Source: Flaviaestuariibacter flavus (GTDB taxonomy: Bacteria > Bacteroidota > Bacteroidia > Chitinophagales > Chitinophagaceae). From it: 64,000 nucleotides of DNA. Under the pieces are notes generated by a model. It was not told where the DNA came from and did not search any database. It saw only the letters and a program-made list of their open reading frames with translations. The stretch is taken from NCBI RefSeq assembly GCF_004337505.1, contig NZ_SJZI01000008.1:482767-546766 (forward strand), given 5' to 3'. A program made the translations under genes and the position numbers. Below, piece after piece: positions 6,264 through 63,472 of this stretch (positions are counted from its first letter, which is position 1; every line of letters begins with the position of its first letter).

Positions 6264-7364
6264 ATGGCAAACGTTCGCTTCGACAACGCTCACGCACCCT
6301 TCCATCAATCGCTCAAACGCTCGGTAGACGCTTACTTCCGGGAGCGCGCCCTGCGCCGCACCGGCGACTGGCGCCTGTTCACCAAGGCACTCGTGCTGCT
6401 GCCCCTGGCCCCGGCCATTTACCTGTTCCTGCTTTTCGGCAAGCCGCCCGCGGCTGCCGGCATCGCCGGGTGCATGCTCCTTGGCCTCGTGCTGGCCTCC
6501 ATCGGTTTCAACATCATGCACGACGCCAACCACGGCGCCTTTTCACAGAAAAAGTGGCTCAACAACCTGCTCGGGCTCTCCCTCAACCTGATCGGGGGGA
6601 ATGCCTTTTTCTGGAAGCAGAAACACAATATCCTGCATCATACCTATACCAATGTGGAAGGGATCGATGACGATATCGCCCAAACGAAACTGCTGCGCCA
6701 GAGTCCTTCGCAGGAGTGGCGCCCCGTGCACCGCTACCAGCACCGCTACCTGTCGCTGGCCTACGGGCTCAGCCTGTTCAGCTGGATCTGGGTCACCGAC
6801 TTCCTGAAATATTTCCGCAAGCGCGTCAACAACAACCCGCTGCCGCCCATGAGCACGAAGGAACACCTTGTTTTCTGGGCCAGTAAGGTTTTCAACATCG
6901 CCGTGTGGATCGTGATCCCGATCTGGGTGCTCGGCCCGCTGCCCTGGCTTACCGGGCTAACGGTCACCTTCCTCACTACGGGCATCGTGATCTCCTGGGT
7001 ATTCCAGCTGGCGCATGCCGTGGAAGGCCCCGAATTCAACCCGGCGGGTCTGAGCGGCACCAATATCGAAATGGAGTGGGCGGCCCACCAGGTGCGCACC
7101 ACGGCCAATTTCGCCACGCATAACCGGGTACTTTCCTGGTATGTCGGCGGGCTCAACTTCCAGGTGGAGCATCATCTTTTCCCGAGGATCGCGCACGTGC
7201 ACTACCCGGCCCTGAGCCGCATCGTACGCCGTGAATGCGAAAAGCATGGCCTCCCCTACCACTGCTTCGACACCCTCGGCGAAGCCATCCGGAGCCATCG
7301 CCGCACCATGCGCGAGCTGGGACGGAAGCCGGAGCTGGAGGAAGAGAGGCTGGAAAGGGCTTGA
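6264..7364 (+). CDS. Membrane fatty acid (acyl-CoA type) desaturase
   Basis: A 366-residue integral membrane di-iron desaturase. The three histidine boxes are intact: HDANHG near residue 85, HNILHHTY near residue 120 and QVEHHLFP near residue 300. Hydrophobic spans lie between the boxes (LVLLPLAPAIYLFLLFG, VWIVIPIWVLGPLPWL). The glutamine in box 3 is typical of the delta-5/6 and linoleoyl-type group. The ATG at 6264 is preferred to 6210 because the upstream residues are Pro/Arg-rich and not conserved-looking. Expected role: introducing double bonds into membrane lipids. The regiospecificity cannot be read from sequence. The stop codon lies at the edge of an intergenic repeat. Confidence 0.9.
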   Translation: MANVRFDNAHAPFHQSLKRSVDAYFRERALRRTGDWRLFTKALVLLPLAPAIYLFLLFGKPPAAAGIAGCMLLGLVLASIGFNIMHDANHGAFSQKKWLNNLLGLSLNLIGGNAFFWKQKHNILHHTYTNVEGIDDDIAQTKLLRQSPSQEWRPVHRYQHRYLSLAYGLSLFSWIWVTDFLKYFRKRVNNNPLPPMSTKEHLVFWASKVFNIAVWIVIPIWVLGPLPWLTGLTVTFLTTGIVISWVFQLAHAVEGPEFNPAGLSGTNIEMEWAAHQVRTTANFATHNRVLSWYVGGLNFQVEHHLFPRIAHVHYPALSRIVRRECEKHGLPYHCFDTLGEAIRSHRRTMRELGRKPELEEERLERA

Positions 7365-7397
7365 CCTCACCCCCGGCCCCTCTCCGGGACGGAGAGG
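7363..7397 (+). repeat. CTCACCCCCGGCCCCTCTCC repeat, left copy
   Basis: The sequence starting GACCTCACCCCCGGCCCC overlaps the last two bases of the desaturase TGA stop. It folds on itself (CCCCTCTCC / GGAGAGGGG) and is matched by an inverted copy at 7524-7560. The word is widely dispersed in many bacterial genomes (recollection). Confidence 0.75.
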
Positions 7398-7402
7398 GGA
7401 GT

Positions 7403-7434
7403 TGAATATCGAATAGCGAACAAGGAATATCGAA
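7403..7434 (+). repeat. GAATATCGAA duplicated word
   Basis: Two imperfect copies of GAATATCGAA flank AGCGAACAAG. It lies between the left CTCACCCC repeat and the terminator and resembles other duplicated intergenic words in this window. Function unknown. Confidence 0.5.
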
Positions 7435-7437
7435 ATG

Positions 7438-7466
7438 AAGAGCGGATGCTAGAAGCATCCGCTCTT
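7438..7466. terminator. Bidirectional terminator
   Basis: Perfect 12-bp stem AAGAGCGGATGC / GCATCCGCTCTT with a TAGAA loop and a T-rich end. It sits between the convergent desaturase and alcohol dehydrogenase genes. A second perfect hairpin (TCAAACAGC / GCTGTTTGA) follows at 7478-7497. Confidence 0.85.
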
Positions 7467-7523
7467 TGTTATTAGGATCAAACAGCAAGCTGTTTGAAAC
7501 AGTAGGAAATATTCCCGGGAGTC

Positions 7524-7560
7524 ACCCCTCTCCTTCCGGAGAGGGGCCGGGGGTGAGGTC
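7524..7560 (-). repeat. CTCACCCCCGGCCCCTCTCC repeat, right (inverted) copy
   Basis: Inverted copy of 7363-7397. Its last base is the first base of the complement of the alcohol dehydrogenase TAG stop, so both convergent genes end at a repeat boundary. Confidence 0.75.
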
Positions 7561-8603
7561 TACAACGTCGCCAGGTCGATTACGAACCGGTACTTCACAT
7601 CGCCACGCATCATGCGCTCATACGCGTTGTTGATGTCCCGGATATCGATCAGCTCCACGTCGGCAACGATGTCGTGCTCGGCGCAGTAGTCGAGCATCTC
7701 CTGCGTTTCGGGGATACCGCCGATCAGCGAGCCGGCAATGGAACGGCGCTGCATGATGAGGCTGAACACGGCCACCTGCGCGGGTTCCGGGGGCGCACCC
7801 ACGCAGATCATCACGCCATTGGTGTTGAGCAGGTTGAGGTAGGTGCCGTAGTCGTGCGGCGCCGATACGGTGTTGATGATGAAATCAAAATAACCGGTAA
7901 GCTGGCTGAGGATATCGGGATTGCTGGTGAGGGCAAAGCGGTGCGCACCGAGCCGCTTTGCGTCCGCCTCCTTGGAGGGCGAGTGACTCAGCATCGTTAC
8001 TTCGGCGCCGAAGGAGGCGGCAAACTTCACGGCCATGTGACCAAGTCCGCCCAGGCCGAGCACGCCCACCTTATGGCCCTTGCCCACCTTCCAGTGACGC
8101 AGCGGCGACCAGGTGGTAACGCCGGCGCAGAGCAGCGGCGCCACGGCTTTGAGGTCCAGCTTTTCGGAAACCTTCAGCACAAAATCTTCCGTTGTCACAA
8201 TCTGCTTCGAGTAGCCGCCATAGGTAACGGTCTTGCCGTCGCGCTCGTAAGCATTGTAGGTGCCCACCGAACCGTTTTCGCAATACTGCTCGAGGCCTTC
8301 CCGGCACTTGGGGCATTCGCGGCAGGAGTCGACGAGACAGCCGACGCCGGCGAGGTCGCCCACCTTGAATTTCTTTACGTGTGCGCCCACTGCGGTCACG
8401 CGCCCAACGATCTCGTGGCCGGGCACCATCGGGTAAATGGAGCCGCCCCATTCGTTGCGTACCTGGTGAATATCCGAGTGACACACCCCGCAATAAAGGA
8501 TCTCGATCTGTACGTCGTGCGGACCGGGCGCGCGGCGTTCCAGCTCAAAGTCGCGGAGCGGCGAGGCCGCGTCGTAAGCGGCGTATGCTTTTGTAATTGA
8601 CAT
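7560..8603 (-). CDS. Zinc-dependent NAD(P) alcohol dehydrogenase (YahK/CAD type)
   Basis: A 347-residue medium-chain dehydrogenase. Catalytic zinc ligands are visible in CGVCHSD and PGHE near the N-terminus, and the structural zinc site in CRECPKCREGLEQYC around residues 90-105. The nucleotide-binding fold carries GVLGLGGLGHMAVKFA. The set of motifs fits the cinnamyl-alcohol/aldehyde reductase branch (YahK, AdhC), which usually reduces aldehydes with NADPH. The frame stays open to 8978, but the ATG at 8603 starts the conserved MSITKAYAAYD region. It stands alone, convergent with the desaturase. The physiological substrate is unknown. Confidence 0.92.
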   Translation of the reverse strand: MSITKAYAAYDAASPLRDFELERRAPGPHDVQIEILYCGVCHSDIHQVRNEWGGSIYPMVPGHEIVGRVTAVGAHVKKFKVGDLAGVGCLVDSCRECPKCREGLEQYCENGSVGTYNAYERDGKTVTYGGYSKQIVTTEDFVLKVSEKLDLKAVAPLLCAGVTTWSPLRHWKVGKGHKVGVLGLGGLGHMAVKFAASFGAEVTMLSHSPSKEADAKRLGAHRFALTSNPDILSQLTGYFDFIINTVSAPHDYGTYLNLLNTNGVMICVGAPPEPAQVAVFSLIMQRRSIAGSLIGGIPETQEMLDYCAEHDIVADVELIDIRDINNAYERMMRGDVKYRFVIDLATL

Positions 8604-8681
8604 GTGTTGCTTGTTTTGTGGCGCCAAAATAAGCAAGGGCCAGATGCAGTAATGGTAGAGCAGCTTGCCTCCCGATTTTGG

Positions 8682-8689
8682 TATATTTG
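8682..8689 (+). promoter_or_regulatory. Bacteroidota-type -7 promoter element
   Basis: TATATTTG matches TAnnTTTG exactly and lies 13 bp before the ATG at 8703, so the leader would be very short. No clear -33 TTTG at the usual distance was found. Confidence 0.45.
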
Positions 8690-8702
8690 GATAAAGCCTT
8701 CC

Positions 8703-10164: not shown

Positions 10165-13100
10165 TTAACGGTCCAGGAGCACCTTGCTGGCAAAGCGCTC
10201 GCCGTTGAGCAGCGTCACTACCGTATAAATACCGTTGGCCGCAAAGCCGGGCACTTCTATATTGAAGGTGGTGGTACCCTGCGGCACCTGCTGCTGCCGG
10301 CTGGCGATCACGCGTCCGGCCGCATCAACAAGCACTACCTGCGCTTTTCCGCCGGTGGCGCTGCGCACCTGCAGCTTCACGGCACTCTTAACCGGGTTGG
10401 TCAGTACCGTTACCGCGTTTTCAACCGCCCCGTTATCCAGGGCCAGGTTCACCACATTGCTGTAGGTGAAGGAGCCGTTGTTATCGAGTTGTCTGAGGCG
10501 GTAGTACACTCGTGCGGAGCGGATGCCGCCGAGGTCGTCGTTGTAACCATACCGCTGCAGCGTGGCGAGGTTGCGGGCATTTACAAACCCGACCTGCTCG
10601 AAGCTGCGGCCATCAAGGCTGCGCTCTACGGCGTACCCGCGGAAGTCGGTCTCGTTGTCTACCGTCCAGCTGAGCGCCGCCGTGTTGCCGCGCTTCACAC
10701 CCGTAAAGGAGATGAGGTGCACCGGCAGCGGTGTTCCGAACACGACCTGGTAGGTTGCCGTCGGGCCCACAAAACCGGCCGCGTCGCGGAAGGCATACTC
10801 AAAGGCGATATTGGTGCTGCCGCGTTGGGACAGGATCGTCAGCTTCGACAAGTCGAAGGACGGGATCTCCCAGGTGCCGTTGCCGCTATTGTAGTAGCCG
10901 CATACACTGTTGCCGGTGTTGCTGCCCTGGCAGCCGCCTGCATGCAGCTGCACGCCGTCGTACACCAGCACGAAACCATCAGGACCACTAACCCCATTCA
11001 CCGTTCCGAAATACGAGCTGGGGTCGATCACGAGGCTGGTGTTGGGCGTGCCATCCGCGAGCGTCAGCGGAGACCCGCTGTTGCCGTCGCCGTCTGCCGC
11101 TGAAGGCGCACCCGGAATATTGCCACCGGACGCGAGACCGGTCATGATGATCCGGTAGTCGTAGTTGATCGCCGGGTTGAGGGTGCTCGCTATGTTGGCA
11201 TTGAGCACACTCGGGCTAGTAAACTGGTTGACGGCATAGCTCTTCGCATCGGCGACCGCCAGTTGCTCAACGGCGAAGTTGATAGCGGCTACACTTGCCG
11301 ATGCCAGGCTTACCGCCGTGCTGCCGTTGATGCTTCCGTCGCTGCCGCTGCCGCTGCCTTCACCGGTGTTGACCCAGTAGGGCGGCAGTGCCGCGACCGT
11401 CGCCGAGGGCGAGGTGGTGAGCAGCAGGGTGTAGTCGCCTGCCGAAAGGCCGGAGATGGCATAGCTGCCATCAGCAGCCACCGTGGCGCTGCCCGCCACC
11501 ATAGTGCCGTCGAGGGCCACCACGTAGAGCGTACCGCCGGCGTTGGTGCCCACACCGTTGATCAGGGCATCGGTGCTGCCATTGTAGTCGTCGAACACGC
11601 TACCGCTGATGGAGAGCGACAGCAGGGGCTGCCGTGCGATTCCGGTGCTGTTGCTTTCCACGTAAGCCGCATCAACGGTTGCATAGGTGAAGTCTACCTC
11701 ACTTGCATTGTTCACCGGATCAACCGATACAGCGGTGAGCGGGTTGCCAGCCGTGTTGGTGGCGACATACAGGCCGCCAGCGGGGAAGGTAGCAGCCGTA
11801 TAGGTGTTGGTGCCGGCCGTGCCGCCCGGCGTTGTTGCCGCCGTCACCGTGATGGAAGTTGCATTGGTCGGGAAGGACTTCAGGTGAATATATTTCACCG
11901 CGCCGCCGCTCAGGTCGGTGGCATCGCTGCCGCCGAAGGTGCCGGCAGGCACGGCAACGTTGATGGTGCCGCCCGGGTTGAGTTGCGGCGTCGCCACGGT
12001 GAGCGGCGTCGTTGCGGGGCGCGCATCGATACCGAAGTCGATCACGAGGGGCGCCGTTACCGCGGTGCTGATAGTATAGCGGCCGTTGGGCAGCGGGTCA
12101 CCGGCGGTGCCGTCGTCGCCTTCACCGGTATTCACCCAGTTGACCGCGTCGGGCAGCCCCTGCGTGGTTGCCGTGGGCGATCCTGCGAGCACGAGGCGAT
12201 AGGTGTTCACATCGCTGCGCAGCCCGTCGGCCGTGCCGAAGCTGTACGTGCCGCCGGTAACCGCTTTCGAAGCCACCACAGTGTTCGTTGCGCCGTCAAC
12301 GAGGTTGACATACAACTGGCCGCCGGCATTGGAGATGAGCGTGCCGTTGATCACCCCGTCATTGGCGCCGTTTACGTCGTCATAGATGGAGCCGCCAATG
12401 GTAATGTCGAGGATCGGGATCCGTCCCAGCCCGGTAGCGATACTTTCAACGCCGGCCTGGTCGATCGCGCGGAAGCTGATCTCCACGGTGTCGGCGCCAT
12501 CAATCGGGTCGATGAAGAAGGGATCGAGCGTACTGCCGCCGGCATCGGTGGCCACATAAATACCGCCTGCCGGGAAGGTCGCAGCCGTAAAGGTCTGCAC
12601 CGTCAGCGAACCGTTCGGGGTGGTCGAAGCGGTAACCGTTACCGCGTTGATCTTCGTCGGGAAGGAGATCACGTGCAGCCTGCTTACCTGGCCGCCGGCC
12701 ACATCAACAGGGTCGGAAGCCAGCGGGATGCCGCTTGCGATCGGGATGAACAGGTTGCCACCGGGGTTAAGCTTTGGCGTGGCCACGATAAGCGGCAGCG
12801 GCACCGGCCTTGCGTCGATACCGAAGTCGATCTGCGTGTTGGCAGCGATGACGCCGGCAAAGGTGTAGGCGCCGTCAACGGTGCCGTCGCCGGTAGTAGC
12901 CGGAATACCTTCCGCCGTATTCACCCACTGTGCCGACGGCAGTGCCGGCGTAGTGGCCGTGGGGCTTGCCGACAGCACCAGCTGGTAGCCGCTTACATCA
13001 TTACGCAGGCCGTCGGCCGTGCTGAAGGAGAAGCCGGGCTGTGCGGCCGTTACGGCTTTCGAAGCCACTACGGTGTTGTTGTAAACGAGGTTCACGTACA

Positions 13101-16100
13101 GCTGCCCGCCGGCGCTTGCAATGGGAGTGCCGTCGATGGTGCCGCCGTTCACATCGTCGTACACCGTGCCGGTAAGCAGCAGGTCGCTCAGCGGCTGACG
13201 TGCCGTGCCGGTAATGGTGCTTGCCTGGCCCGCGTTATCGATTGCATGGAATGCGAAGTCGACATTCACCGCTCCGTCAACCGGGTCGACGGTGATGGCC
13301 GACGTGGGATTTCCGTTGCTGCCAGTAGCTACATACACGCCGCCTGCGGGGAAAGTAGCACTGGTGTAAGAAAGCGGTCCGGGTGTGCCGCCCGGCGTTG
13401 TGGAAGCAGCCGCGAAATTCACAGTCGTCGCATTCGTGGGGAAGCTGGCGATCCGGATAAAGCTGACCACACCACCGCTGATATCATTGGCATCCGAAGC
13501 CACAAACGTGGATGCGGGGATCGTGACGAGGTTGATGCCTCCGGGGTTCACCTGGGTCACGGCCGTCGTAATGAAGGCAGGTACCGGGAGCGCGTCGATG
13601 GCGAAGTCGATCACCCGGTTGGTGGTAACAACACCGCCGAATACGTAGCGGCCGTTGGGCACCGGATCGCCGGCGGTACCGCTGACCCCCTCGGCGATAT
13701 TCACCCAGTCGGCGGGCGCGGGAAGCCCCGGCGTGGTGGCGGCAGGCGAAGCGGCAAGTACCAGCTGGTAGTTTGCCACATCGCTCCGCAGGCCGTCGGC
13801 CGTACCGAAGCTGAAGGTGCCGTTGGAGAGCAGCTTGCTGCTCACTACGACGCCCGACTGAACGTCCACCAGGTTCACATACAACCGGCCGCCTGCATCG
13901 GAGATAGGTGTGCCGTCAATGCGTCCATCGGTGAGGCCGTCCACATCATCGAACACCGTACCCGTGATCAGCAGGTCGCTGAGCGGCTGCGCCGCAACCG
14001 CCGTATTGTTGCTTTCCACGCCGGCATTGTCCACCACGCGGAAGGGAACGGTTACGGTTACTGCGCCATCAAGCGGATCAACCAGTATGGCCGTGGTCGG
14101 GTTACCCGAAGTATTGGTAGCCACGTACACACCACCTGCCGGGAAGTTGCCCGGATTATAGGTGCTTGTAGTTACCGGACCACCCAAAGCATTGCTGCCG
14201 GTAAGGGTGATCGAGGTGGCATTACCCGGGATGGCCGTGATATGAATGTAGCTGATGGCACCGCCGCTGATATCCACCGCATCGGTGCCGCTGAAGGTTG
14301 CAGCCGGGATCGTTATGTTGTTGGTGCCGCCCGGGTTGGTCTGTGTAACCGCTGTCGCCGATACCGCCGTCGGCTTCCCGTCGATACCGAAGTCGATTAC
14401 AGCCGGACTTGTCACCGCGCCGCCGAAGCTGTAGCTGCCGTCCGCACCGCCGTCGCCCGAAGTGCCGCTGAGACCTTCGGCCGTATTTGCCCAGGCCGAG
14501 CTCGGAAGCACCGGAGTTGTACCGGTGGCGCTGTTGGTGAGCACGAGCGTGTAGTTGCCCACATCGTTGCGCACGCCGTTGGCGGTGCTGAAGCTATAGG
14601 TGCCGTTGGTGAGAGCCTGCGAAGCCACTACTACCCCACCGCTCACCAGGTTCACATAAAGCTGGCCGTTGGCGTTGGAGATCGGCATTCCGTTGATGGT
14701 GCCGCCGTTGGCATCGTCGTATACCGTACCGGCTATTACCAGGTCGGAAAGCGGCTGCTGCAGGGTAGCCGTGTTGGTGCTTTCGAGCCCGCCGTTGTCC
14801 ACCACGCGGTAGGAGATCGCGATGGTGTTGGCGCCGTCCACCGGGTCTGCGAGTATCGCGGTGGCGGGGTTGCCCGACGCGTCGGTGGCAATGTAAACCC
14901 CACCTCCCGGGAAGGAGCCCGAAGTATAGGTAGCCGTGGTCACCGCGCCGCCGGGGGTGGTGCCCGCGGTGACCGTGATCGAGGTCACATTGGTGGGGAA
15001 AGCCGTGATATGGATGTAGCTGATCTCACCACCGTTGGCCGCATCCGGATCGGTGCCGCTGAAGGAGGCAGCGGGAACCGTGATGGTGTTGGTGCCGCCG
15101 GGATTCACCTGCGCGGGCGCGGTGCTGCTGTTCGCAACCGGCCGGGCATCGAATCCAAAGTCGGCATTGGTGATACCGCCCGAGGAAAGGTTTACCACCA
15201 GCTGGCCGTCGGCCGGGGCTACGATGCTGCCGCCGATACCCTCGCCGGTATTCACATAGCCGGCGGGCAGGGTGGCGGTGCTGGAGCCGGCACTGGTCGT
15301 CAGCGTCAGTGTATAGGTGGCGCTGCCCAGGCCCGCGATCACGTAAGTACCGTTTGCCTGTACGGGAGCCGATGCCGCTACGTTGCCCAGGTTGTCAACC
15401 GCATTTATATAAAGCTGGCCGCCGAGACTGGTACCGACACCGTCGATCTGGTTGTCGGTGAGGGCGTCAACGTCATTATACACCGTGCCGGAGATAGCCC
15501 CGAGCACGAAGGGCACCGTGGTTACGGCAGCATTGCTTTCATAACCGGCGATGTCGAATACCGTGTACGGGAAAGTCGCCGATACGGCGCCGTTGGCCGG
15601 GTCGACCTTGAGGGCATCAACCGGCAGCAGGAAGCCCGGACCATCTGTGGGAATATAGAGACCGCCCGTGGGGAAGTTGGCAGACGTGTAGGTCTGCGTG
15701 GTAGCCGTGCCGCCATAGGACGTGGCTGCCAGAACCGTTATGGATACCGCGTTAGCCGGGAATGCCGTGAGGCGCACATAGGCGATCTCACCATTGACAT
15801 CCGGGTCGGTGCCGGGGAAGGAAGCCGAGGGAATCGTCACCAGCGCGTTTCCGCCCGGGTTGTTTTGCGCCGTGATGGTGCTGCTCGAAGCGGTCGGGAT
15901 CGCATTGACGCCGAAGAAAAGCGTTTGGGTTGTCTGCACATTGCTCAGCGCAACGCTACCATTCGCGCTGCCGTCGCCTGTGTTGCTGTTGCCCTCGGCG
16001 GTGTTCACCCAGCCCGCCGGCAGGTTCGATGCAGTTGCGGTTGCCGTAGTGGCGATCACCACCGTGTAATTGCCACCGCTTACGATGCCGTTGGTGGTGC

Positions 16101-19100
16101 TGAAGCTGAAGGTGCCCGCAGTGCCGCCGGCCGTCGGCAGGGCCTGGCTGGCAAGTACGGTGCCACCGCTCACCAGGTTGACATAGACCTGCGTTCCACC
16201 CACACTGCCTGCGGGTGTGCCGTTGATGATGCCGTCGAGTGTTCCATTGGCATCATCGTAAAGCGTGCCGGCGATGGCCAGGTCGGTAAGCGGCTGCCGT
16301 GCGATGCCGCTTGTCAGGCTTTCGCGGCCCGAGTTGTCGATGGCGGTGAAGATTAAGTCAACATTTACTGCGCCGTTAACCGGGTCTACCGTGATGGCGG
16401 AAAGCGGGTTGCCATTGCTTGCTGTGGCTACATACACCCCTCCCGTTGGGAAGTTGCCTGCATTATAGGCAAGCGGAACAAAAGGCCCGCCTACCGAAGT
16501 AGCCGCCGAAGCGAAACTTACCGTGGTGGTGTTGGCGGGGAAAGCCGTGATATGAATAAAGCTGACGGCGCCGCCGCTGATATCGTTTGCATCCGAAGCC
16601 ATGAATGTGGACGCAGGAATCGTAACGAAGGTGGGGCCACCCGGGTTTACCTGGGGCGTAGCAGTCGTGAGCGTCGCCGGAACGGGCAGTGCTTCGATGG
16701 CAAAGTCGATCTGCTGCGCCGTAATGATGGCGCCGCCGAAATTATAGGTACCGTTGGCCGTCGCATCGCCGGATGTGCCGCTCACCCCTTCGGCCATATA
16801 TACCCAGCCGGCGGAGGGCAGCGTGGCGGTATTTGCCGAAGGGCTGCTGGTGAGTACGAGGCGATACGACACATTGTTGAGCACACCGTCGGCCGTGCCG
16901 AAACTGTAGCTGCCGTTGGCGATGGCCTGCGAGGCTACCACCGTGTTGTTGGAGGCATTGACAAGGTTGACATAAAGCTGGCCGCCGGCATTGGAGATCA
17001 GTGCGCCGTCGATGACACCGCCGTTCACGTCGTCATATACCTTTCCGGAGATGGAGAGGTCGCCGAGCGGCTGGCGGGCAATGCCGCTGCCGTTGCTTTC
17101 CTCGAGCGCGTTGTCAATCACTTTGTATACGAAGTCAACATTTACTGCGCCGTTCACCGGGTCTACTGTAATGGCCGACGTCGGGTTTCCGGCCGTATTG
17201 GTGGCAATGTAAACACCACCGGCAGGGAAGGAGGCGGCTGTATAAGTCAAGGCACCGGGAGCACCGCCGGGCGTTGTTGCGGCCGACGCAAAATTCACCC
17301 GGGTGCTGTTGGAGGGGAAAGAGATAATGTGGATGTAATTGATCTGGCCACCACTCACGTCATTGGCATCGGAGCCCGAGAACGTCGACGCGGGGATAGA
17401 TACCGTAGCCGTGCCGCCCGGGTTCACCTGCGTAGCGGCGGTGGTGAGGGTCGCCGGGATCGGCAGCGCATCGATACCAAAGTCCACCTGCTGCGACGTG
17501 GTCAGCGCGCCGCCAAACAGGTAGCGTCCGTTCACGTTGGCGTCGCCGGCAGTGCCGGGCAGGCCTTCACCCGTATTGACCCATCCCGAAGAGGGCAGCA
17601 CCGGCGTTGTGGAGGCAGCACTGCTGGTCAGCACCAGCGCATAGGTAGTAACGCCATTCTGCACGCCGTTGGCGGTGCCGAAGGAATAGGTGCCGTTGGT
17701 CAGCGCCTGCGACGCCACCACCGTGTTGTTGCTGGTGTTGATCAGGTTCACATACAGCTGCCCGCCCGCCGACGACACCGGCGTGCCGTCGATCAGGTTG
17801 TCGGTTGCGCCATCGGCGTCGTCGTAAACCGTACCGGTGATCGTGAGGTCGCTGAGCGGCTGCCGGGCAGTGCCGGATGTGTTGCTTTCCTTGCCGGCGT
17901 TGTCGATCGCCGTATAGGTAAAGTCCACGCTCACCGCACCGTTCACGGGATCTGCCGTGATTGTGGCGGTGGGATTGCCGGCCGCATTGGTCGGGATATA
18001 GATACCACCGGCCGGGAAGGTGCCGACCGTATAGCTCACCGTACCGTAAGTGCCGTTCACCGAAGTGGCGGCATTCGATACGTTCAGCGTAGTGGTATTG
18101 GTGGGGAAGGACGTGATATGGAAGAAGCTCACGGCGCCGCCGCTGATGTCGGTTGCATCCGAAGCGCTGAAGGTGCTGGCGGGAACCGTAACCGTTGCGG
18201 TACCGCCCGGGTTCACTTGCGAAGCCGCAGTGCTGAGCGGCGCCACCGTGGGCAGCGCATCGATACCGAAGTCGATCACGGTATTGGTGCTGATGGCTCC
18301 GCCGAAGCTATAGGTACCATCACCGGTGCCGTCACCGGTGGTGCCGGTGCTTCCTTCAGCGGTATTGGTCCATGCGCCGTTGGGCAGGCCGGCCACCGTT
18401 GCGGCGGGCGATGCGGCAAGTACCAGGCGGTACGTGCTCACGCTGCTCATCAGGCCATCGGCGGTAGAGAAGCTATAGGCACCGCCACTGACTGCCTTCG
18501 AGGCCACCAGCGTGTTGGTGGTGCTGTTCACCAGGTTTACATAGAGTTGTCCGCCCGCATTGGAAATGGGGAAGCCGTCGATGGTGCCCGCGTTCACGTC
18601 GTCGTAGACATTACCGGACAGGGTCAGATCGCTGAGCGGCTGGCGGGCGATGCCGGTGTTATTGCTTTCCTTACCCGCGTTGTCCACCACCTTATAAGCG
18701 AGGTCTACGGTCACCGCACCATTAATGGGGTCTACCAGCACATTGGTGGCAGGGTTGCCCGCAGTGTTGGTGGCTACATACACACCGCCAGCGGGGAACG
18801 TAGCGCTGGTATAGGTTGTGGTCGTTACCGCGCCGCCGGGAGTCAGGGCACCGGTGAGCGTAATGGAAGTGACATTGTTCGGGAAGGTTGTGATAAGAAT
18901 ATACGAGATCTGCCCGGCGTTGTTCAGGTCCACCAGGTCGGTGCCGCTGAAGGTCGCCGCCGGGATCGTCACATTATTGGCGCCGCCGGGGTTCACCTGC
19001 GTTGTGGCCGTGGTGATGCCGGTTGTTGTGGGTCTTGCATCGATACCGAAATCCACGACCGTATTGCCGGTTACCACGGCGCCGAAGCTGTAAATACCGT

Positions 19101-22566: not shown

Positions 22567-22948
22567 ATGGACGGGTTTGGGTTGACGATCGTACGATGAG
22601 CAGGTATCCGCGAAGGATAGGTAGCCAAAATGCGGATAGGTACGGGAATTCAAGAGCTTCGGTTTTGGAAGGCGCAGATCAAAAAACATTTATAAGTACA
22701 ATTACTTACGCACAAAAATATTCTGATCGGTTAAGGACTACTCCGAAATTAGACGAACGCGTTACTTAAGCCGGCGGATGCCGAAAATATTTATGAAAAC
22801 CAAGTATTTCCACTTATTTATGGACGAGATAGGGTTGTTACGGCAATGGCTTCCCAATAAGTAAGGCGTCCAGACGGACCGCCCCGTTGTACGGATTTCG
22901 CAGAAATAAGTATTTTACTTAGACAGAATAAAGTCGTACTTTGGACAG
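22567..22948. other. AT-rich divergent intergenic region
   Basis: 382 bp between the giant protein gene and the GAF-domain gene, clearly AT-richer than the genes. It must hold both promoters. A TACTTTG box at 22937-22943 lies 5 bp before the GAF-protein ATG and resembles a -7 element with one base fewer than the consensus. No gene or repeat was recognised. Confidence 0.5.
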
Positions 22949-24343: not shown

Positions 24344-25153
24344 ATGCTCACCGTTCATAGGGCCGTTGCCCGCACCGAAACACCTGCCTGGCTCCGCACC
24401 CTTGCCCGGGCCGGCCTCCTGGCCAAAGGCTGCACCTATTGCCTCTTCGGCGTCCTGGTGTTCATGTCCGCCTTTCATATCGGCGGCCGCTCGGCCCGCA
24501 GCGCCGACCGCAGCGGCATCTTCATTCTCCTCGACGACGCCCCGGGTGGCCTGTGGCTGGTGGGCGCCCTTGCTTTGGGCCTGGCCTGCTATGCCTGCTG
24601 GCGCCTCATCGAGGCGGTGCGCCCGCCGGTGGCGGCAAGCGGTGGCACCAAAGGCGCTGCCCGCAGGGCCCGTTATGCCATCAGTGGCATCGGCTACGGC
24701 TCCCTTTCCTGGCTGGCGGCCCGCTATGCGCTTACCCATCACCGATCGGGTGGCGACAAGCAGCAGGATGCCGCGCAGCAACTGTTGCAGCAACCCGCCG
24801 GGCAATGGCTGGCCGGCGCGGCCGCGCTCGTACTATTAGGCGTGGGTATTTACCAGATCTGGTATGGCTGGTCGGAACACTACCGCAAGCACGTGCCCGG
24901 CGCCACGTTGCAGAAAGCCGGCAAGGTAGGCTACACCGCCCGCGGCATCGTCTGGATCCTCCTCGGCTGGCTCTTTGGCCGCGCCGCTCTCCACGCCAAC
25001 GCCTCCGAGGCGGGCGACACCTCCAGGGCTTTTCAATTCATCGCCGCCGGCACTTGGGGCCCCTGGCTGCTGGCCACGCTCGGCATCGGCCTGCTCTGCT
25101 ACGGAGTCTATAATTTCATCCGCGCAAAGCATGATCGCATCGGGCAGGCCTGA
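24344..25153 (+). CDS. DUF1206 membrane protein
   Basis: 269 residues with six hydrophobic spans arranged as three similar two-helix units (LARAGLLAKGCTYCLFGVLV; ARRARYAISGIGYGSLSW; AGKVGYTARGIVWILLGWLF), the hallmark of DUF1206 inner-membrane proteins. Function is not established for this family. The ATG at 24344 is chosen because it begins just before the first unit; the longer frame from 24230 adds a poorly conserved stretch. The TGA stop lies inside the 31-nt repeat word at 25147-25177. Confidence 0.82.
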   Translation: MLTVHRAVARTETPAWLRTLARAGLLAKGCTYCLFGVLVFMSAFHIGGRSARSADRSGIFILLDDAPGGLWLVGALALGLACYACWRLIEAVRPPVAASGGTKGAARRARYAISGIGYGSLSWLAARYALTHHRSGGDKQQDAAQQLLQQPAGQWLAGAAALVLLGVGIYQIWYGWSEHYRKHVPGATLQKAGKVGYTARGIVWILLGWLFGRAALHANASEAGDTSRAFQFIAAGTWGPWLLATLGIGLLCYGVYNFIRAKHDRIGQA

Positions 25154-25191
25154 ACGTGAATCGGCAATCGTGAATCGTCAATCGTGAATAG
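25147..25191 (+). repeat. GTGAATCG word array, contains a stop codon
   Basis: The first 31 nt (to 25177) are identical to the minus strand of 1131-1161. GTGAATCG occurs repeatedly, ending in AATCGTGAATAG. The TGA stop of the DUF1206 gene (25151-25153) is part of the shared 31-mer. Confidence 0.8.
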
Positions 25192-25232
25192 TGCAGTGCT
25201 TTCCGTATGGAGTCTGCCCTTACGAAGGATGC

Positions 25233-25258
25233 ACATCAGACATCCGACATCAGACATC
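25233..25258 (+). repeat. ACATCAGACATCCGACATC word array
   Basis: Tandem variants of GACATC (ACATCAGACATCCGACATC and onward) 20 bp before the M28 peptidase start. The same word family occurs at 48214-48235 and 63446-63472. Confidence 0.75.
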
Positions 25259-48164: not shown

Positions 48165-48213
48165 ATCCCTTAAACAGAAAAACCGGTGCCAAAGGAGAAA
48201 ATTTTTCGATCGC

Positions 48214-48235
48214 TGATGTCCGATGTCTGATTTGG
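48214..48235 (+). repeat. TGATGTCCGATGTCTGATTT word
   Basis: Second site of the GATGTC word family (see 25233-25258 and 63446-63472), about 50 bp upstream of the ligD start. Confidence 0.75.
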
Positions 48236-51302: not shown

Positions 51303-52356
51303 AGACCACCTCAAGATCAACCGCGACTACAGCGAAGCCGCCCGCGCCGCCGACCTGGTGTATGTAAGCGACCAGTGGCCGGGCATCCGCCGCATGAAGA
51401 AGGGGAAAGGTTTCGCCTACACGTTGAAAGATGCTCCGGTAACTGACAAGGAGGTGCTGGAGCGGATCCGCAAGCTGGCCATCCCGCCCGCCTGGACCGA
51501 GGTGTGGATCTGCGCACGGGCCAACGGACATATACAGGCCACCGGTAAGGATGTACGCGGCCGCAAGCAATACCGCTACCATCCGCATTGGCACGAGCTG
51601 CGCAATGAAACCAAGTTTCACCGCCTCTTTGAGTTCGGAAGGCTCTTGCCCAGCCTGCGCCTGCAGCTCGAGGAAGACCTGGCAATTAAGGAGCTCACCA
51701 TCCGCAAGGTGATCGCTACGGTCATCTCGCTGATGGAGCGCACTTATATCCGTATCGGCAATGCCGACTACGAAAAGCAGAACGGATCCTATGGGCTGAC
51801 GACGCTCAAAGACAGGCATGTCAAAATACAGGGCGACCAGCTGCGCTTTTCCTTTACGGGGAAAAAAGGGATCGATCACGACATCTCGGTGCGCAACCGC
51901 CGCCTGGCGCGCGCCGTACAGGCCTGCCGCGACATCCCGGGAAAGGAGTTGTTTCAATACTATGACGCGGATGGAAAGCGCCACCCCATCGATTCGGGCA
52001 TGGTAAATCAATATATCAAGGAAGCCACCGGTGGCGACTTTACGGCCAAAGACTTCCGCACCTGGGCCGGCACGCTCAATGTGCTGCGCGCCTTCAAGGT
52101 GATGGACCCCGCCGAAAGCGACAGTGCCCTGAAACGCAATACCCTGAGCGCGCTCGATGAAGTCAGCCATAAGCTGGGCAACACCCGCACCGTTTGCAAA
52201 AAATACTATGTGCACCCGGGCATCATCCGCCTCTACGAAGAGCGCAGCCTGCAGCTTTACCTCGACGAGCTCGACAAGATCGAGGAGCCCGATAACCTTT
52301 CCGGTCTTACGCGCGAAGAGCGGGTGCTGATGAAGATCCTGAAAGAGCTGGTTTAG
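51274..52356 (+). CDS. DNA topoisomerase IB
   Basis: 360 residues of the poxvirus-like bacterial type IB topoisomerase. The N-terminal domain has the Arg/Lys-rich GIRRMKKGKGFAY and GRKQYRYHPHWHELR. The catalytic domain shows MERTYIRIGNADYEKQNGSY, AKDFRTWAGTLNVLRAF with the catalytic Arg, and CKKYYVHPG with the nucleophile among Tyr311/Tyr312. It relaxes supercoils of either sign without ATP through a 3'-phosphotyrosine intermediate. It overlaps the iron permease-like gene by 29 bp. The stop TAG is the first triplet of an intergenic word, followed at once by a terminator. Confidence 0.95.
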   Translation: MEAVSSLSHKDHLKINRDYSEAARAADLVYVSDQWPGIRRMKKGKGFAYTLKDAPVTDKEVLERIRKLAIPPAWTEVWICARANGHIQATGKDVRGRKQYRYHPHWHELRNETKFHRLFEFGRLLPSLRLQLEEDLAIKELTIRKVIATVISLMERTYIRIGNADYEKQNGSYGLTTLKDRHVKIQGDQLRFSFTGKKGIDHDISVRNRRLARAVQACRDIPGKELFQYYDADGKRHPIDSGMVNQYIKEATGGDFTAKDFRTWAGTLNVLRAFKVMDPAESDSALKRNTLSALDEVSHKLGNTRTVCKKYYVHPGIIRLYEERSLQLYLDELDKIEEPDNLSGLTREERVLMKILKELV

Positions 52357-52373
52357 TGTGCGAGTGTGCTAAA
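52354..52373 (+). repeat. TAGTGTG...GTGCTAAA word, left arm
   Basis: Starts with the TAG stop codon of the topoisomerase gene (TAGTGTGCGAGTGTGCTAAA). Inverted partner at 52425-52454, with the terminator between them. Confidence 0.78.
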
Positions 52374-52412
52374 ATGTCAATACCCCGCGCAAGCGCAGGG
52401 TATTGACATTTT
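52371..52412. terminator. Long bidirectional terminator
   Basis: A 15-bp perfect stem (AAAATGTCAATACCC / GGGTATTGACATTTT) with an internal smaller hairpin (GCG CAAG CGC), between convergent genes. Confidence 0.92.
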
Positions 52413-52424: not shown

Positions 52425-52454
52425 GCTTTAGCACATTAGCAGATCAACACACTA
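52425..52454 (-). repeat. TAGTGTG...GTGCTAAA word, right (inverted) arm
   Basis: On the minus strand it starts TAGTGTGTTGATCTGCTAAT and ends GTGCTAAAGC. Its TAG is the stop codon of the DUF6496 gene. Confidence 0.78.
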
Positions 52455-57064: not shown

Positions 57065-57090
57065 TATCGGAGTGTGCTAGTGTGCTAGTT
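57062..57090 (+). repeat. GTGTGCTAG word array, left arm
   Basis: Begins at the TAG stop of the frameshifted gene; AGTGTGCTAGTGTGCTAGTT is its core. Inverted relatives at 57150-57186, with a terminator between. Confidence 0.72.
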
Positions 57091-57111: not shown

Positions 57112-57146
57112 AAGACAAATCCCTGCCTTCGGCAGGGATTTGTCTT
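57112..57146. terminator. Bidirectional terminator
   Basis: A 16-bp perfect stem AAGACAAATCCCTGCC / GGCAGGGATTTGTCTT with a TTC loop, between convergent genes. Confidence 0.92.
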
Positions 57147-57149: not shown

Positions 57150-57186
57150 ATACCAGCACACTAGCAAACCAGCCTACCACCACACT
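57150..57186 (-). repeat. GTGTGCTAG word array, right (inverted) arm
   Basis: On the minus strand it starts directly after the kinase stop codon (AGTGTGGTGGTAGGC) and continues GGTTTGCTAGTGTGCTGG. Confidence 0.7.
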
Positions 57187-58632
57187 TTACACGGCCGGGA
57201 AGGAAATTGTAAACGTCGTTCCCTGTCCTACCGCCGAGCTCACATCGATCTGTGCTTTGTGTGCCTGCAGTATGTTGAGGGTTGCGGCAAGACCAAGCCC
57301 CATGCCGTTGCGCTTGGAGGTGTAATAAGGCTCGAACAGGCGGGAGATATTTTCTTCGGGAATTCCGCAGCCGTTGTCGCGTACTACCGCCACGTGGCGA
57401 TCATCTTCGGTTGTTACCGTAATGTCCAGGGTTCCCGAGCCGTCGGCGGGCATCGCTTCGACCGCGTTAATTACGATGTTGAGAAACGCGATCTTGAGCT
57501 TTTCCTTGTTGGCGTTGAGATAGCAAGGCTCCTCGGGCCGGCGCACCCGGAGCTGTATGTGCTGCAGGGTAATGCGGTCCAGGGCTTCGCTGATGCTTTC
57601 GTCAAGCACCGCCTGTAGCGTCGTTCGCTCGAAGGTCATTTCGGTGGGACGGCTTGTATCAAGCAGTTCCGTGATGAGGTCACCGATCCGCTTGGAGTTG
57701 CGCTGGATGATATCAAGAAACAGGGCGGCTTCTTCATTCACCTGGTCGCCCACCAATTGCTCCACCGACATATTGATGTTGTTGAGCGGGTTGCGCACCT
57801 CGTGGGCAAGCGTCCGCACAAGGCGGCCCGTGGCCCCGAGCTTTTCCACCATCAGGTTGGCCTTCTCGGCGCGGCGCAGGTTGGTGATGTCGTGCATCAG
57901 GCCCTGGTAGTGAGAGCCTCCGTCGGGATCCACCGCGGCGGTGAGCGTGAAGATGAAGATGCGGCGGTCGCCCGAGCTGGTGCTGATCTCCACTTCCAGG
58001 TCATTCACCTCGCCTTCCTGCTCCAGTATGCGCCGCAGGTGTTCCTTGTCGCCTTCATCCACAATCAGGTCGTACACGGTGCGGCGCTGCAGTTCGTCGG
58101 CCGCATAGCCGAGCAACTCCGAGGTGGCCGCATTCACGTCCTTGAAATAAAGATCCTTGTCGGCGATGAACACGACGTCTTTCGAAAGCTCGAAAATGCT
58201 CCGGTACTTTTTCTCGTTGGCGCGCAGGGCCTTCAGGTAGGCTGTCCGCTCGAGCGCATAGCGGATGCAGCGCTCCAGCTTGTCGGCATTGAGATCGGTT
58301 TTTACCAGGTAGTCGGTAGCACCGATCTGCATGGCCTCGATATCGATCTCTTTGTTGCCTTTACCCGTAAGCAATACGATTGGCTCTTCGCAGCCAAGAC
58401 GGATGGCTTCCTTGAGGAAGTCGATACCGGTTTTGGCGCCGAGGCGGTAGTCGACAAAATAAATGTCGAAGGCCCGCTTCTGCACCTGGTCGATGGCGTC
58501 GGAGAATTTGTAGGCCCAGTTGATCACGAGGTTGTACTCCTCGATCTGGCGAAGGTATTCGGAGGTGATGAAGTAGTCATCCTCGTCATCGTCGATGATC
58601 AGGATGCGGATGGTGGGCTTAGTGATGGGCAT
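57187..58632 (-). CDS. Cytoplasmic REC-PAS-histidine kinase
   Basis: 481 residues, no membrane span. A receiver domain comes first (about 1-130; ILIIDDDEDDYF and the phosphoacceptor Asp in IYFVDYRLGAKTG). A PAS domain follows (about 140-255; VVFIADKDLYFKDVNAATSE). The kinase core then has the H-box LAHEVRNPLNNINM, the N-box IVINAVEAMPADG, and glycine boxes DNGCGIPEE and GMGLGLAA. With its own receiver it probably sits in a relay. It overlaps the small upstream gene by 14 bp and is the last gene of the rpoN unit, so it is likely the kinase for the NtrC-type activator encoded there. Confidence 0.93.
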   Translation of the reverse strand: MPITKPTIRILIIDDDEDDYFITSEYLRQIEEYNLVINWAYKFSDAIDQVQKRAFDIYFVDYRLGAKTGIDFLKEAIRLGCEEPIVLLTGKGNKEIDIEAMQIGATDYLVKTDLNADKLERCIRYALERTAYLKALRANEKKYRSIFELSKDVVFIADKDLYFKDVNAATSELLGYAADELQRRTVYDLIVDEGDKEHLRRILEQEGEVNDLEVEISTSSGDRRIFIFTLTAAVDPDGGSHYQGLMHDITNLRRAEKANLMVEKLGATGRLVRTLAHEVRNPLNNINMSVEQLVGDQVNEEAALFLDIIQRNSKRIGDLITELLDTSRPTEMTFERTTLQAVLDESISEALDRITLQHIQLRVRRPEEPCYLNANKEKLKIAFLNIVINAVEAMPADGSGTLDITVTTEDDRHVAVVRDNGCGIPEENISRLFEPYYTSKRNGMGLGLAATLNILQAHKAQIDVSSAVGQGTTFTISFPAV

Positions 58633-62332: not shown

Positions 62333-62354
62333 GCGCAGCCTCTTAAGGTTGCGC
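62333..62354 (-). terminator. Terminator of the 66-aa protein gene
   Basis: On the minus strand GCGCAACC / GGCTGCGC (one G-U) followed by seven T. Confidence 0.78.
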
Positions 62355-62380
62355 CCGCTAAAACCGGTTACAGCTGACCG

Positions 62381-62787: not shown

Positions 62788-62955
62788 ATGTTACGTTGGA
62801 CAGTAATCTTTCTGGTAGTAGCGATTATCGCAGCGATCTTTGGTTTTGGTGGCATTGCTGCCGGCGCCGCTTCGATCGCCAAGATCCTCTTCTTTATCTT
62901 CCTGGTGCTCTTCGTGCTGAGCCTCATCGCCGGTGGTTTCCGCCGCGTGGACTAA
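62788..62955 (+). CDS. DUF1328 small membrane protein (55 aa)
   Basis: 55 residues with two hydrophobic helices ([38 protein letters not shown]), and the start [20 protein letters not shown] together with [16 protein letters not shown] is the DUF1328 (YtjA) signature. These are small inner-membrane proteins, often stress-induced, of unknown role. A strong terminator follows 16 bp after the stop. Confidence 0.9.
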
Positions 62956-62971
62956 GCCCCGGAGCCTGGAC

Positions 62972-63010
62972 AATAAAAAAAGGAACGCGCACTGCGTTCC
63001 TTTTTTTATT
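62972..63010 (+). terminator. Terminator after DUF1328 gene
   Basis: Stem AATAAAAAAAGGAACGC / GCGTTCCTTTTTTTATT with a GCACT loop. Confidence 0.92.
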
Positions 63011-63013
63011 GCC

Positions 63014-63040
63014 GTGAATCGGCAATCGTGAATCGTGAAT
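63014..63040 (+). repeat. GTGAATCG word array, left arm
   Basis: Shares 23 nt exactly with 25156-25178. It starts 3 bp after the terminator and faces an inverted copy at 63111-63134. Confidence 0.8.
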
Positions 63041-63057
63041 GCTGACGCCTGATTATT

Positions 63058-63090
63058 AAAAGAACGGAGGCCAGGGGCCTCCGTTCTTTT
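63058..63090. terminator. Second terminator, bidirectional
   Basis: A 15-bp stem AAAAGAACGGAGGCC / GGCCTCCGTTCTTTT with an AGG loop, flanked by inverted GTGAATCG words, between convergent genes. Confidence 0.9.
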
Positions 63091-63110
63091 TGCCGCGCAT
63101 TGCGGATCGG

Positions 63111-63134
63111 CGATTCACGATTGACGATTCACGA
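63111..63134 (-). repeat. GTGAATCG word array, right (inverted) arm
   Basis: On the minus strand it reads TCGTGAATCGTCAATCGTGA and onward, starting 2 bp after the stop codon of the 82-aa gene, and matches 25169-25190 except near its end. Confidence 0.8.
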
Positions 63135-63136
63135 CC

Positions 63137-63385
63137 TCATCGCGAGCTGTCGCTGTCTTCGCTGCTGCGCGGCGCGCTGTTGTCCCCGGCGGCGTCGCCC
63201 GGGGCCTCGGTGCGCTCCGATTCGGAGCGGTTGGCGATCACTTTCTCGTCGTTGCGCGGATCGCTGGGATCCGACTCGGCAAAGGACTCCATCCCGCCCT
63301 CGCGGCGCGGCGTCATATCCGGCAGGTTATCGTTGTAACCGGGCTCGTTGGGGAGCCCCATGTGGTTGGTTAACGGCTTATCCAT
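63137..63385 (-). CDS. Small acidic hypothetical protein (82 aa)
   Basis: 82 residues, hydrophilic and disordered-looking (MDKPLTNHMGLPNEPGYNDN; MESFAESDPSDPRNDEKVIA; ending SSEDSDSSR). No signal peptide or membrane span. It is followed by an inverted word repeat and a terminator, and preceded at 63390 by another word (TTTTAAGGTTCTGTGGTTCT). Similar short Ser/Asp/Pro-rich proteins occur beside stress genes in Bacteroidota, but I cannot name a family. Confidence 0.6.
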   Translation of the reverse strand: MDKPLTNHMGLPNEPGYNDNLPDMTPRREGGMESFAESDPSDPRNDEKVIANRSESERTEAPGDAAGDNSAPRSSEDSDSSR

Positions 63386-63445
63386 AAAGAAAAGGTTTTA
63401 AGGTTCTGTGGTTCTAAGTTTCCGGGGTTGGTTGGGGACCAACCC

Positions 63446-63472
63446 AAATCAGACATCGGACATCCGACATCA
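63446..63472 (-). repeat. TGATGTC word array, contains a stop codon
   Basis: On the minus strand it reads TGATGTCGGATGTCCGATGT and continues to CTGATTT; its first TGA is the stop codon of the 149-aa gene. Same family as 25233-25258 and 48214-48235. Confidence 0.8.

What the first reader, a model, noticed from the sequence alone, without database searches (positions are those of the whole stretch)
7363..63472. Several families of short duplicated intergenic words are anchored at stop codons
At least four unrelated words begin at, or within 0-4 bp of, stop codons: GTGAATCG arrays (25151, 63136), TGATGTC arrays (63472), TAGTGTG...GTGCTAAA (52354, 52454, 57062, 57186) and CTCACCCC (7363, 7560). 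In several cases the stop triplet is the first three bases of the word. The words are internally duplicated and differ in sequence between families but share placement. Described function: none known to me. Possible roles are 3'-end RNA structure, protein or RNA binding at mRNA ends, or a mobile element that targets gene ends.
Basis: partly seen in the sequence, partly recalled or inferred. Interest (0 to 1): 0.72.

Follow-up and report, generated by a model that had tools for sequence, protein, structure and literature searches.

The report
Heptamer-word inverted repeats at gene ends
Short repeated DNA words do start right after stop codons in this bacterium more often than chance; many are the arms of scattered mirror-image elements that can fold into hairpins and that change their words in both arms together, a new variant of a poorly explained but already noticed kind of bacterial repeat.

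Summary
In 864 kb of the genome, degenerate tandem arrays in intergenic DNA have almost only period 7 (108) or 8 (60); shuffles give under one each. They abut stops: outside the window 30 of 193 arrays lie 0-2 nt from a stop, 5.1 expected, no excess at starts. The stop triplet is not usually part of the word.

Whole elements are dispersed: four convergent gene pairs with unrelated flanking proteins share one. At orthologous places both arms can carry another word. The anatomy recurs in Terrimonas and an acidobacterial genome.

Best explanation: dispersed palindromic elements whose arms are rewritten by 7/8-nt slippage and arm-to-arm template switching (inferred); between convergent genes they often enclose a terminator. 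RAYT mobilisation and a stop-codon fence were tested and not supported. Closest known: GGGAATC heptamers of Xanthomonas and Nostoc.

The parts
7366..7399 (+). Left end of a composite element: CTCACCCCCGGCCCCTCTCC with its own small hairpin, 1 nt after the stop TGA (7362-7364) of a fatty acid desaturase gene
   Evidence: other GACCTCACCC ends
7404..7433 (+). GAATATC-type 7-mer array inside the composite (scored 7404-7420, the rest by eye)
   Evidence: related copies
7440..7467 (.). Terminator-like hairpin GAGCGGATGC...GCATCCGCTC + T-run
   Evidence: by eye
7523..7557 (-). Right end of the composite: inverted CTCACCCC copy, abutting the convergent zinc-type alcohol dehydrogenase gene (stop 7560-7562)
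25156..25193 (+). GTGAATC/GTCAATC 7-mer array, 2 nt after stop TGA (25151-25153) of a DUF1206 gene
25233..25258 (-). Second, unrelated array (GATGTCT family, inverted) further downstream; lies inside an ORF that my gene caller accepted at 25207
48213..48231 (+). GATGTCCGATGTCTGAT array, about 50 nt from the 5' end of the neighbouring gene
52354..52372 (+). Left arm TAGTGTGCGAGTGTGCTA; stop TAG of a topoisomerase IB gene is its first triplet (by eye; below the array score)
52371..52412 (.). Terminator-like hairpin between the arms
52430..52454 (-). Right arm (inverted GTGTGCTA words, by eye) abutting the stop of a DUF6496 gene on the minus strand
57071..57089 (+). Left arm (AGTGTGCT)n, 46 nt after the nearest called stop (57024): not stop-anchored
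57112..57146 (.). Terminator-like hairpin between the arms
57152..57186 (-). Right arm, abutting the stop of a hybrid histidine kinase gene (57187-58632); scored part 57152-57179
63013..63040 (+). Left arm, GTGAATC words, of a dispersed element
63041..63110 (.). Centre of the dispersed element: GCTGACGCCTGA..., terminator-like hairpin, GCCGCGCATTGCGG; homologous centres at sample places c2 181520, c2 184757 and c46 137485
63111..63134 (-). Right arm (inverted), 2 nt from the stop of the gene 63137-63385 on the minus strand
63392..63415 (+). GGTTCTGA-type 8-mer array, 6 nt upstream of a start codon
63448..63472 (-). TGATGTC array on the minus strand; the stop TGA (63470-63472) of gene 63470-63919 is its first triplet

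Best explanation
These words are arms of dispersed, palindromic intergenic elements. Each arm is a short degenerate tandem array of a 7- or 8-base word; in about half of the cases the two arms of an element are recognisably inverted copies of each other, and between convergent genes they often enclose an intrinsic terminator. Shown: period 7/8, inversion, abutment to stop codons, one element at four convergent pairs of unrelated genes, and word replacement in both arms at orthologous places. Inferred: units are gained and lost by 7-8-nt replication slippage; the two arms are kept alike because a polymerase that stalls at the hairpin switches template and copies one arm onto the other (quasipalindrome correction), so a new word takes over the whole element. 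Inferred: stops are favoured because the base after a stop is the first free base, while the stretch before a start carries signals; a transcript meets the element as a 3'-end hairpin that may help end or protect the message.
For: Period 7/8: 108 and 60 arrays against 0.8 and 0.6 in shuffles. Stops: 30 of 193 against 5.1 in G000; 11 of 109 against 2.9 in G342+G338 (largest of 1000 placements 12), 10 of 71 against 2.5 in Terrimonas, 13 of 91 against 4.2 in MAG9. Inverted partner in the same region: 103 of 200 (52% vs 3.3%), 43 of 109 (39% vs 2.3%), 12 of 71 (17% vs 8.2%), 73 of 91 (80% vs 8.1%). Long-separated inverted repeats score >=14 in 121 of 694 regions of three genomes, 0 of 150 shuffled. 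One element at four convergent pairs with flanking proteins that do not match each other (69/107 to 86/117 identical bases), mainly GTGAATC-type words in the window copy and GTGAGCC-type words in the c46 copy, in both arms. Word change in both arms at one orthologous place: AATCTGG to AAGTCGG (G000/G338), GTTTGTG to GTTTGGG (G345/G343, neighbours 98% and 94% identical; one G345 arm by eye). Slippage: L201 and L207, 96.6% identical, differ by 35 nt = 5 units in the array. Template switching that makes inverted-repeat arms alike is documented elsewhere (PMC8604942, PMC7202029; listing and start of abstract).
Against: Only 52% of arrays have a scored partner; 74 of 137 array regions hold an array with no partner, and in Terrimonas only 17% of arrays have one. 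A terminator-like hairpin sits between the arms in 8 of 19 convergent but only 3 of 37 tandem and 0 of 7 divergent paired regions. Divergent regions, which hold no gene end, carry arrays too (23 of 122), and in G342+G338 paired arrays are densest there (12 in 73 regions; tandem 27 in 224, convergent 4 in 62). Slippage does not by itself explain why few words dominate one genome or how elements disperse. No close genome pair allowed the arm-to-arm copying step to be watched. In the same-family comparison (own partner better than the mean of others in 96 of 116, 39 of 49, 15 of 16, 54 of 71) only arrays with own score >=9 were kept, which favours the own partner.
Confidence: 0.5

Rival explanations
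1. Transposed non-autonomous elements (REPIN- or MITE-like) that insert at gene ends through a transposase; the tandem words are subterminal binding sites.
For: Whole elements are dispersed among unrelated gene pairs; present/absent at orthologous places (G342: only G000 6, only G342 6, both 4, neither 20 of 36); terminal CTCACCCC inverted repeats in one composite.
Against: Words change freely, unlike binding sites; Y1/RAYT genes have an array within 250 nt in only 3 of 30 loci; no target duplication was looked for.
Confidence: 0.25
2. Selected 3'-end structures: extended terminators or mRNA 3' stems, whose words are free to drift as long as the arms pair.
For: Abut stops; fold far better than shuffles (z -8.6, -6.6, -7.1); in G000 paired arrays are densest between convergent genes (31 in 107 regions, tandem 61 in 360, divergent 11 in 122), likewise MAG9 (17 in 28, 50 in 101, 6 in 22) and Terrimonas (7 in 12, 4 in 90, 1 in 21); terminator between arms in 8 of 19 convergent paired regions vs 20% in controls.
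Against: In G342+G338 the order is the reverse (convergent 4 in 62, tandem 27 in 224, divergent 12 in 73); terminators are not enriched between arms in tandem regions; pairing alone does not require a 7/8 period. Odds lowered from 0.20 to 0.17 when the G342+G338 counts were written in.
Confidence: 0.17
3. Stop-codon fences: words carry stop triplets and a period not divisible by 3, so readthrough ribosomes stop in every frame.
For: Stop-triplet density is higher on the sense strand in all four sets (0.063 vs 0.039, 0.060 vs 0.044, 0.113 vs 0.064, 0.065 vs 0.053); in Terrimonas all three frames are closed in 13 of 28 sense against 5 of 28 antisense.
Against: All three frames are closed in only 14 of 83 sense arrays in G000 (6 antisense), 7 of 47 in G342+G338 (5 antisense) and 7 of 52 in MAG9 (10 antisense); the GAATATC word has no stop.
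Confidence: 0.02
4. Binding sites of a sequence-specific DNA- or RNA-binding protein at mRNA ends.
For: Words have polarity relative to the intergenic centre within families in G000 (by eye) and are sense-biased in 3' flanks (GAATATC 37 sense, 5 antisense).
Against: 41 distinct 7-mer classes in the G000 sample and word swaps at the same site.
Confidence: 0.03

Closest known systems
GGGAATC / GGGGA(C/T)T heptamer repeats of Xanthomonas and Nostoc (PMC4692102; passages found by term, sections 13 and 16 read)
   Same: Heptamer unit; intergenic; [quoted passage not shown] places shared between species with length and sequence variation; inverted repeats and stem-loops mentioned.
   Different: One G-tract word kind with quadruplex potential and preferred copy number of four; here many words, the main ones without G-tracts, of 7 and 8 nt, frequent inverted arms, word replacement at the same place, dispersed composites.
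TAACTGA direct repeats of marine Beggiatoaceae (PMC4679880; abstract, introduction and the Cyanobacteria/Bacteroidetes section read)
   Same: Short heptamer direct repeats in intergenic DNA, also in some Bacteroidetes; some sets between stop codons in Microcystis.
   Different: One word, in the main genome mostly just upstream of start codons, with one indirect repeat reported there.
REP / REPIN elements with RAYT (PMC3116915, PMC3733652; search listing and start of abstract only)
   Same: Dispersed intergenic palindromes.
   Different: Arms here are tandem words that drift; 27 of 30 Y1 transposase loci have no array in 250-nt flanks.
Inverted repeats next to stop codons in Escherichia coli (PMC6060812; abstract read)
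   Same: Inverted repeats enriched just downstream of stop codons and at mRNA ends.
   Different: There most with arms of 8 bp or more and spacers of 8 bp or less are parts of intrinsic terminators; here arms are longer, tandemly repeated and widely spaced.
Quasipalindrome template switching (PMC8604942, PMC7202029; search listing and start of abstract only)
   Same: Known mechanism that makes the arms of an inverted repeat alike.
   Different: Described there as a mutation process; I saw no account of it as the author of a genome-wide class of gene-end elements.

Membership tests
Heptamer simple-sequence repeats of the GGGAATC kind | Heptamer unit dominates | tested here: met
   108 arrays of period 7 and 60 of period 8, each other period from 5 to 13 at most 10
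Heptamer simple-sequence repeats of the GGGAATC kind | Near stops on the coding strand, word reading away from the gene | tested here: met
Heptamer simple-sequence repeats of the GGGAATC kind | G-tracts able to form quadruplexes | tested here: not met
   the main G000 words (GTGAATC, GATGTCT, GAATATC, GATCTCN, GTGTGCTA) hold no GGG; a minor word, AATGGGGT, does
REP/REPIN | Dispersed intergenic palindromes | tested here: met
REP/REPIN | Flank a RAYT (Y1) transposase gene | tested here: not met
   array within 250 nt in 3 of 30 Y1 loci from 10 genomes (30 of the 40 matches listed had loci)
REP/REPIN | GTAG or CGTC end tag | not tested
   feature taken from a paper title (PMC3733652)
MITE | Terminal inverted repeats | tested here: met
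   CTCACCCC ends of the composite at 7366-7557; for the word arrays the arms themselves are the repeats
MITE | Target-site duplication | not tested
   no empty site close enough in sequence was in hand
Intrinsic terminator | G+C-rich hairpin with T-run between the arms | tested here: inconclusive
   8 of 19 convergent paired regions vs 20% control; 3 of 37 tandem vs 9%; 0 of 7 divergent vs 1%
TAACTGA repeats | Just upstream of start codons | tested here: not met
   0-2 nt from a start: 3 observed, 4.2 expected

The most novel reading that the evidence does not exclude
Gene ends of many unrelated bacteria carry one class of self-rewriting element: a palindrome whose arms are written in 7- or 8-base words, with the word free to change but in both arms at once, possibly by a dedicated enzyme that copies short words at hairpins. 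The word would be a lineage dialect, the place and form the conserved trait.
Probability: 0.12. Interest if true: 0.85.

Novelty: new variant of a known kind. Interest (0 to 1): 0.55.

Why it matters
In the sampled 864 kb, 137 of 589 intergenic regions hold such an array and 29% of intergenic bases match another intergenic locus, so this is a large and mostly unexplained share of non-coding DNA. If arms are rewritten in concert at gene ends in distant phyla, bacteria offer a natural system in which slippage, template switching and dispersal can be followed at hundreds of sites; a form kept without a kept sequence would also explain why family models miss it (Rfam at its gathering scores finds only one tRNA in the window).

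Tried and rejected
RAYT/Y1 transposase as mobiliser: 3 of 30 Y1 loci have an array in 250-nt flanks. My first extraction of these ORFs was wrong because I ignored the strand; one search replaces it.

All-frame stop fence: not supported as a general role, though Terrimonas leans that way (13 of 28 sense, 5 antisense). Array periodicity running into the coding sequence, or the array supplying the stop: not supported (full-stop continuation 5 of 34, 0 of 17, 1 of 13, 1 of 16).

Within the genus it is above control (24 of 62 against 7, 7 and 2.3), in the family probably (7 of 28 against 1, 1 and 1.5). For 8-mers the numbers are too small (2 of 23, 0 of 7, 0 of 33). In the cross-phylum loci the GTSAATC word had no fixed polarity (convergent 18 forward, 23 reverse; tandem stop side 32 and 25), and 69 of 230 hits were not in a called intergenic region.

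G-over-C polarity of left arms as a law: 84 G>C, 31 C>G, 6 ties, a trend only; a Rho-site idea that leaned on it was dropped. First terminator count (hairpin 18 of 53 against 22%) used a faulty extension; one search replaces it. CTCACCC contexts misread motifs that touch a stop as coding; one search replaces it. GATGTCTGATGTCTGATGT was found only in the own genome among 198 phylum genomes; GATGTCTGATGTCTGA in 10 of 147 family genomes, own included, reversed control one hit, none in the two other genus members drawn there.

Literature: eight searches in open-licence PubMed Central; I saw in their listings no account of inverted 7/8-mer arms whose words change together. Subscription papers were not searched.


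Full report
Setting. The window is G000:C8:482767-546766 of a 3.96 Mb draft genome in 52 contigs. A Por_Secre_tail domain in one protein points to Bacteroidota (recalled meaning of that family); the name of the organism was not established. I took 800 kb of further stretches of this genome and called genes with a simple hexamer-based caller of my own (745 genes in 864 kb). Gene ends are therefore predictions; starts are less sure than stops.

Observation. In intergenic DNA, arrays found by autocorrelation are almost all of period 7 (108) or 8 (60); periods 5, 6 and 9-13 give 1 to 10 each, and dinucleotide shuffles give 0.8 and 0.6 for 7 and 8. At a stricter threshold, periods 7 and 8 give 10 and 2 in 760 kb of coding DNA against 82 and 44 in 102.5 kb of intergenic DNA. 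At a looser threshold there are 200 arrays in 137 of 589 regions. Placement test: outside the window 30 of 193 arrays are within 0-2 nt of a stop, 5.1 expected, maximum 14 in 1000 random placements in the same regions; starts 3 against 4.2. In the window 2 of 6 against 0.4, too few to carry weight; the 52354 and 7366 words are not among the scored arrays. G342+G338: 11 of 109 against 2.9 (maximum 12, so not beyond every placement), starts 1 against 3.0. Terrimonas: 10 of 71 against 2.5 (maximum 7), starts 4 against 2.2. Acidobacterial MAG9: 13 of 91 against 4.2 (maximum 12), starts 3 against 3.0. The null is uniform placement within each region; it does not model a boundary effect.

Anatomy. 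Many array pairs in one region are inverted copies: 103 of 200 arrays in G000 have an inverted partner scoring at least 12 in their own region, against 3.3% with other regions; G342+G338 43 of 109 (2.3%), Terrimonas 12 of 71 (8.2%), MAG9 73 of 91 (8.1%). A separate scan for spaced inverted repeats finds 121 of 694 regions of 50-320 nt (G000, G342, G338 together) at score 14 or more and 0 of 150 shuffled; 45 of the 121 left arms show strong period 7 or 8, 1 shows a strong period 5, 6, 9 or 10. Within most families in G000 the word has a steady polarity from the gene outward (by eye). Three window elements fold as an outer stem made by the arms with a terminator hairpin inside, z -8.6, -6.6 and -7.1 (for 52354 the arms pair fully only in the centroid). 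Genome-wide this nesting holds mainly between convergent genes: a terminator-like hairpin lies between the arms in 8 of 19 convergent, 3 of 37 tandem and 0 of 7 divergent paired regions; length-matched array-free controls 20%, 9% and 1%.

Dispersal. 29,540 of 102,513 intergenic bases match another intergenic locus; 5,140 of 5,796 array bases do. A search with the element at 63012-63137 printed six intergenic loci with a match of 45 nt or more. I aligned the four convergent ones (window, c2 181520, c2 184757, c46 137485; 69/107 to 86/117 identical aligned bases) and left out two tandem loci (c8 84364, c46 122180) before that count; the eight flanking proteins of the four do not match one another at E 1e-3. 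The arms of the c46 137485 copy read mainly GTGAGCC/GTCAACC where the window copy reads GTGAATC, on both sides. The composite at 7366-7557 also has partial copies at many loci.

Word change at one place. The gene before the 52354 element (topoisomerase IB) has orthologues in all 18 genus genomes searched. Of the 17 others, one locus is cut off, three carry a scored array after this gene with another 7-mer word (G342 GTGAAAT, G346 GTGAATT with an inverted partner, G341 GGTCAAT), 13 none (the G000 array itself is by eye). Conserved neighbouring pairs: G342 36 pairs, both with array 4, only G000 6, only G342 6, neither 20; G338 26 pairs, 4, 4, 2, 16; G341 3 pairs, none. G345 against G343: 40 pairs, both 2, only G343 2, only G345 1, neither 35. 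So in most conserved pairs neither genome has an array, and presence often differs. Clear cases of the same place with both arms changed: c8 198565 (AATCTGG in G000, AAGTCGG in G338); window 62956 (GTGAATC; GTGAGCC in G342; GTCAGCC/GTGAGCC in G338, left arm by eye); and the pair at 74674 of G345 (GTTTGTG, left arm by eye, against GTTTGGG in G343; neighbouring proteins 98% and 94% identical). Other pairs show unlike words of unlike length at the same place (c2 18847, 8-mer against 7-mer). One close pair of loci, L201 and L207 (96.6% identical), differs by exactly five 7-nt units.

Spread. The double word GTSAATCGTSAATCGTS occurs 372 times in Terrimonas ferruginea and 94 times in the acidobacterial MAG9, reversed control 0 in both; among the listed MAG9 places many are plus/minus pairs with starts about 40-60 nt apart. 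In 200 kb of each, periods are 7:49, 8:12 and 7:76, 8:3, others at most 2, and the stop-array-centre-inverted-array form is plain to see; both samples were chosen around hits, so rates are not genome averages. Samples of 20 further genus and family genomes (20 kb each, one only 3.4 kb; some placed near word hits) give 35 arrays of period 7, 7 of period 8, 6 of period 9 and 11 of period 11, with 7 of 20 holding no period-7/8 array. Sharing of exact 7-mer words with G000 is above control in the genus and probably the family, near chance across phyla.

Mechanism. Period and clean unit steps argue for slippage; PMC4679880 and PMC4692102 cite the proposal that a 7-nt polymerase contact favours it (sections read). 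Two arms that carry the same new word at the same place are hard to reach by single compensated changes and easy by template switching at a hairpin, a process known to make inverted-repeat arms alike (PMC8604942, PMC7202029, listing and start of abstract). This step is inferred. Dispersal is shown as a pattern; its agent is unknown, and the Y1/RAYT link was tested and not met. Abutment to stops may be a boundary effect or a sign of a 3'-end role; the data do not separate these. Paired arrays are densest between convergent genes in G000 (31 in 107 regions; tandem 61 in 360; divergent 11 in 122), MAG9 (17 in 28; 50 in 101; 6 in 22) and Terrimonas (7 in 12; 4 in 90; 1 in 21), but not in G342+G338 (4 in 62; 27 in 224; 12 in 73).

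Verdict. A real, genome-wide feature. Heptamer repeats close to stops on the coding strand with place kept and sequence varied were already reported for G-rich words in Xanthomonas and Nostoc (PMC4692102, sections 13 and 16 read). What I did not see reported in the listings is the inverted-arm form with many words, dispersal of whole elements, and concerted word change in both arms.

Noticed in passing
window 7366-7557 and c8 36334, 39621, 204652, 206976, 383105 (sample coordinates): GACCTCACCCC(C)GGCCCCTCTCC terminal inverted repeats of a separate dispersed composite; 13 ends in intergenic DNA, 7 on the stop side (5 within 3 nt) and 6 on the start side.
   Followed up: partly
sample c8 203207, c46 130356 and others: Another large dispersed intergenic family (ACGCAGAT...TTATGATT...AATCATAA...AGCGTTCTTTCTC) inside a cluster of 161 linked regions.
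   Followed up: no
genes with an array at most 3 nt after the stop, four genome sets: Stop usage leans to TGA and away from TAA: TAA 21 of 80 next to arrays against 535 of 1193 of all ends with an intergenic region (summed).
   Followed up: no
window 10165-22689, minus strand: A 4174-codon ORF with very long open frames on the opposite strand (11263-16356 and 16552-20334).
   Followed up: no
G353 (L110, Terrimonas ferruginea): 372 matches of one 17-base double word in a 4.7 Mb genome, reversed control 0.
   Followed up: partly
flanks of Y1 transposase genes, e.g. L255, L273: By eye: CCCACGGTTTCAACCGTGGG- and GCCCCGTAGGGGC-like palindromes beside some Y1 genes, unlike the heptamer arrays.
   Followed up: no
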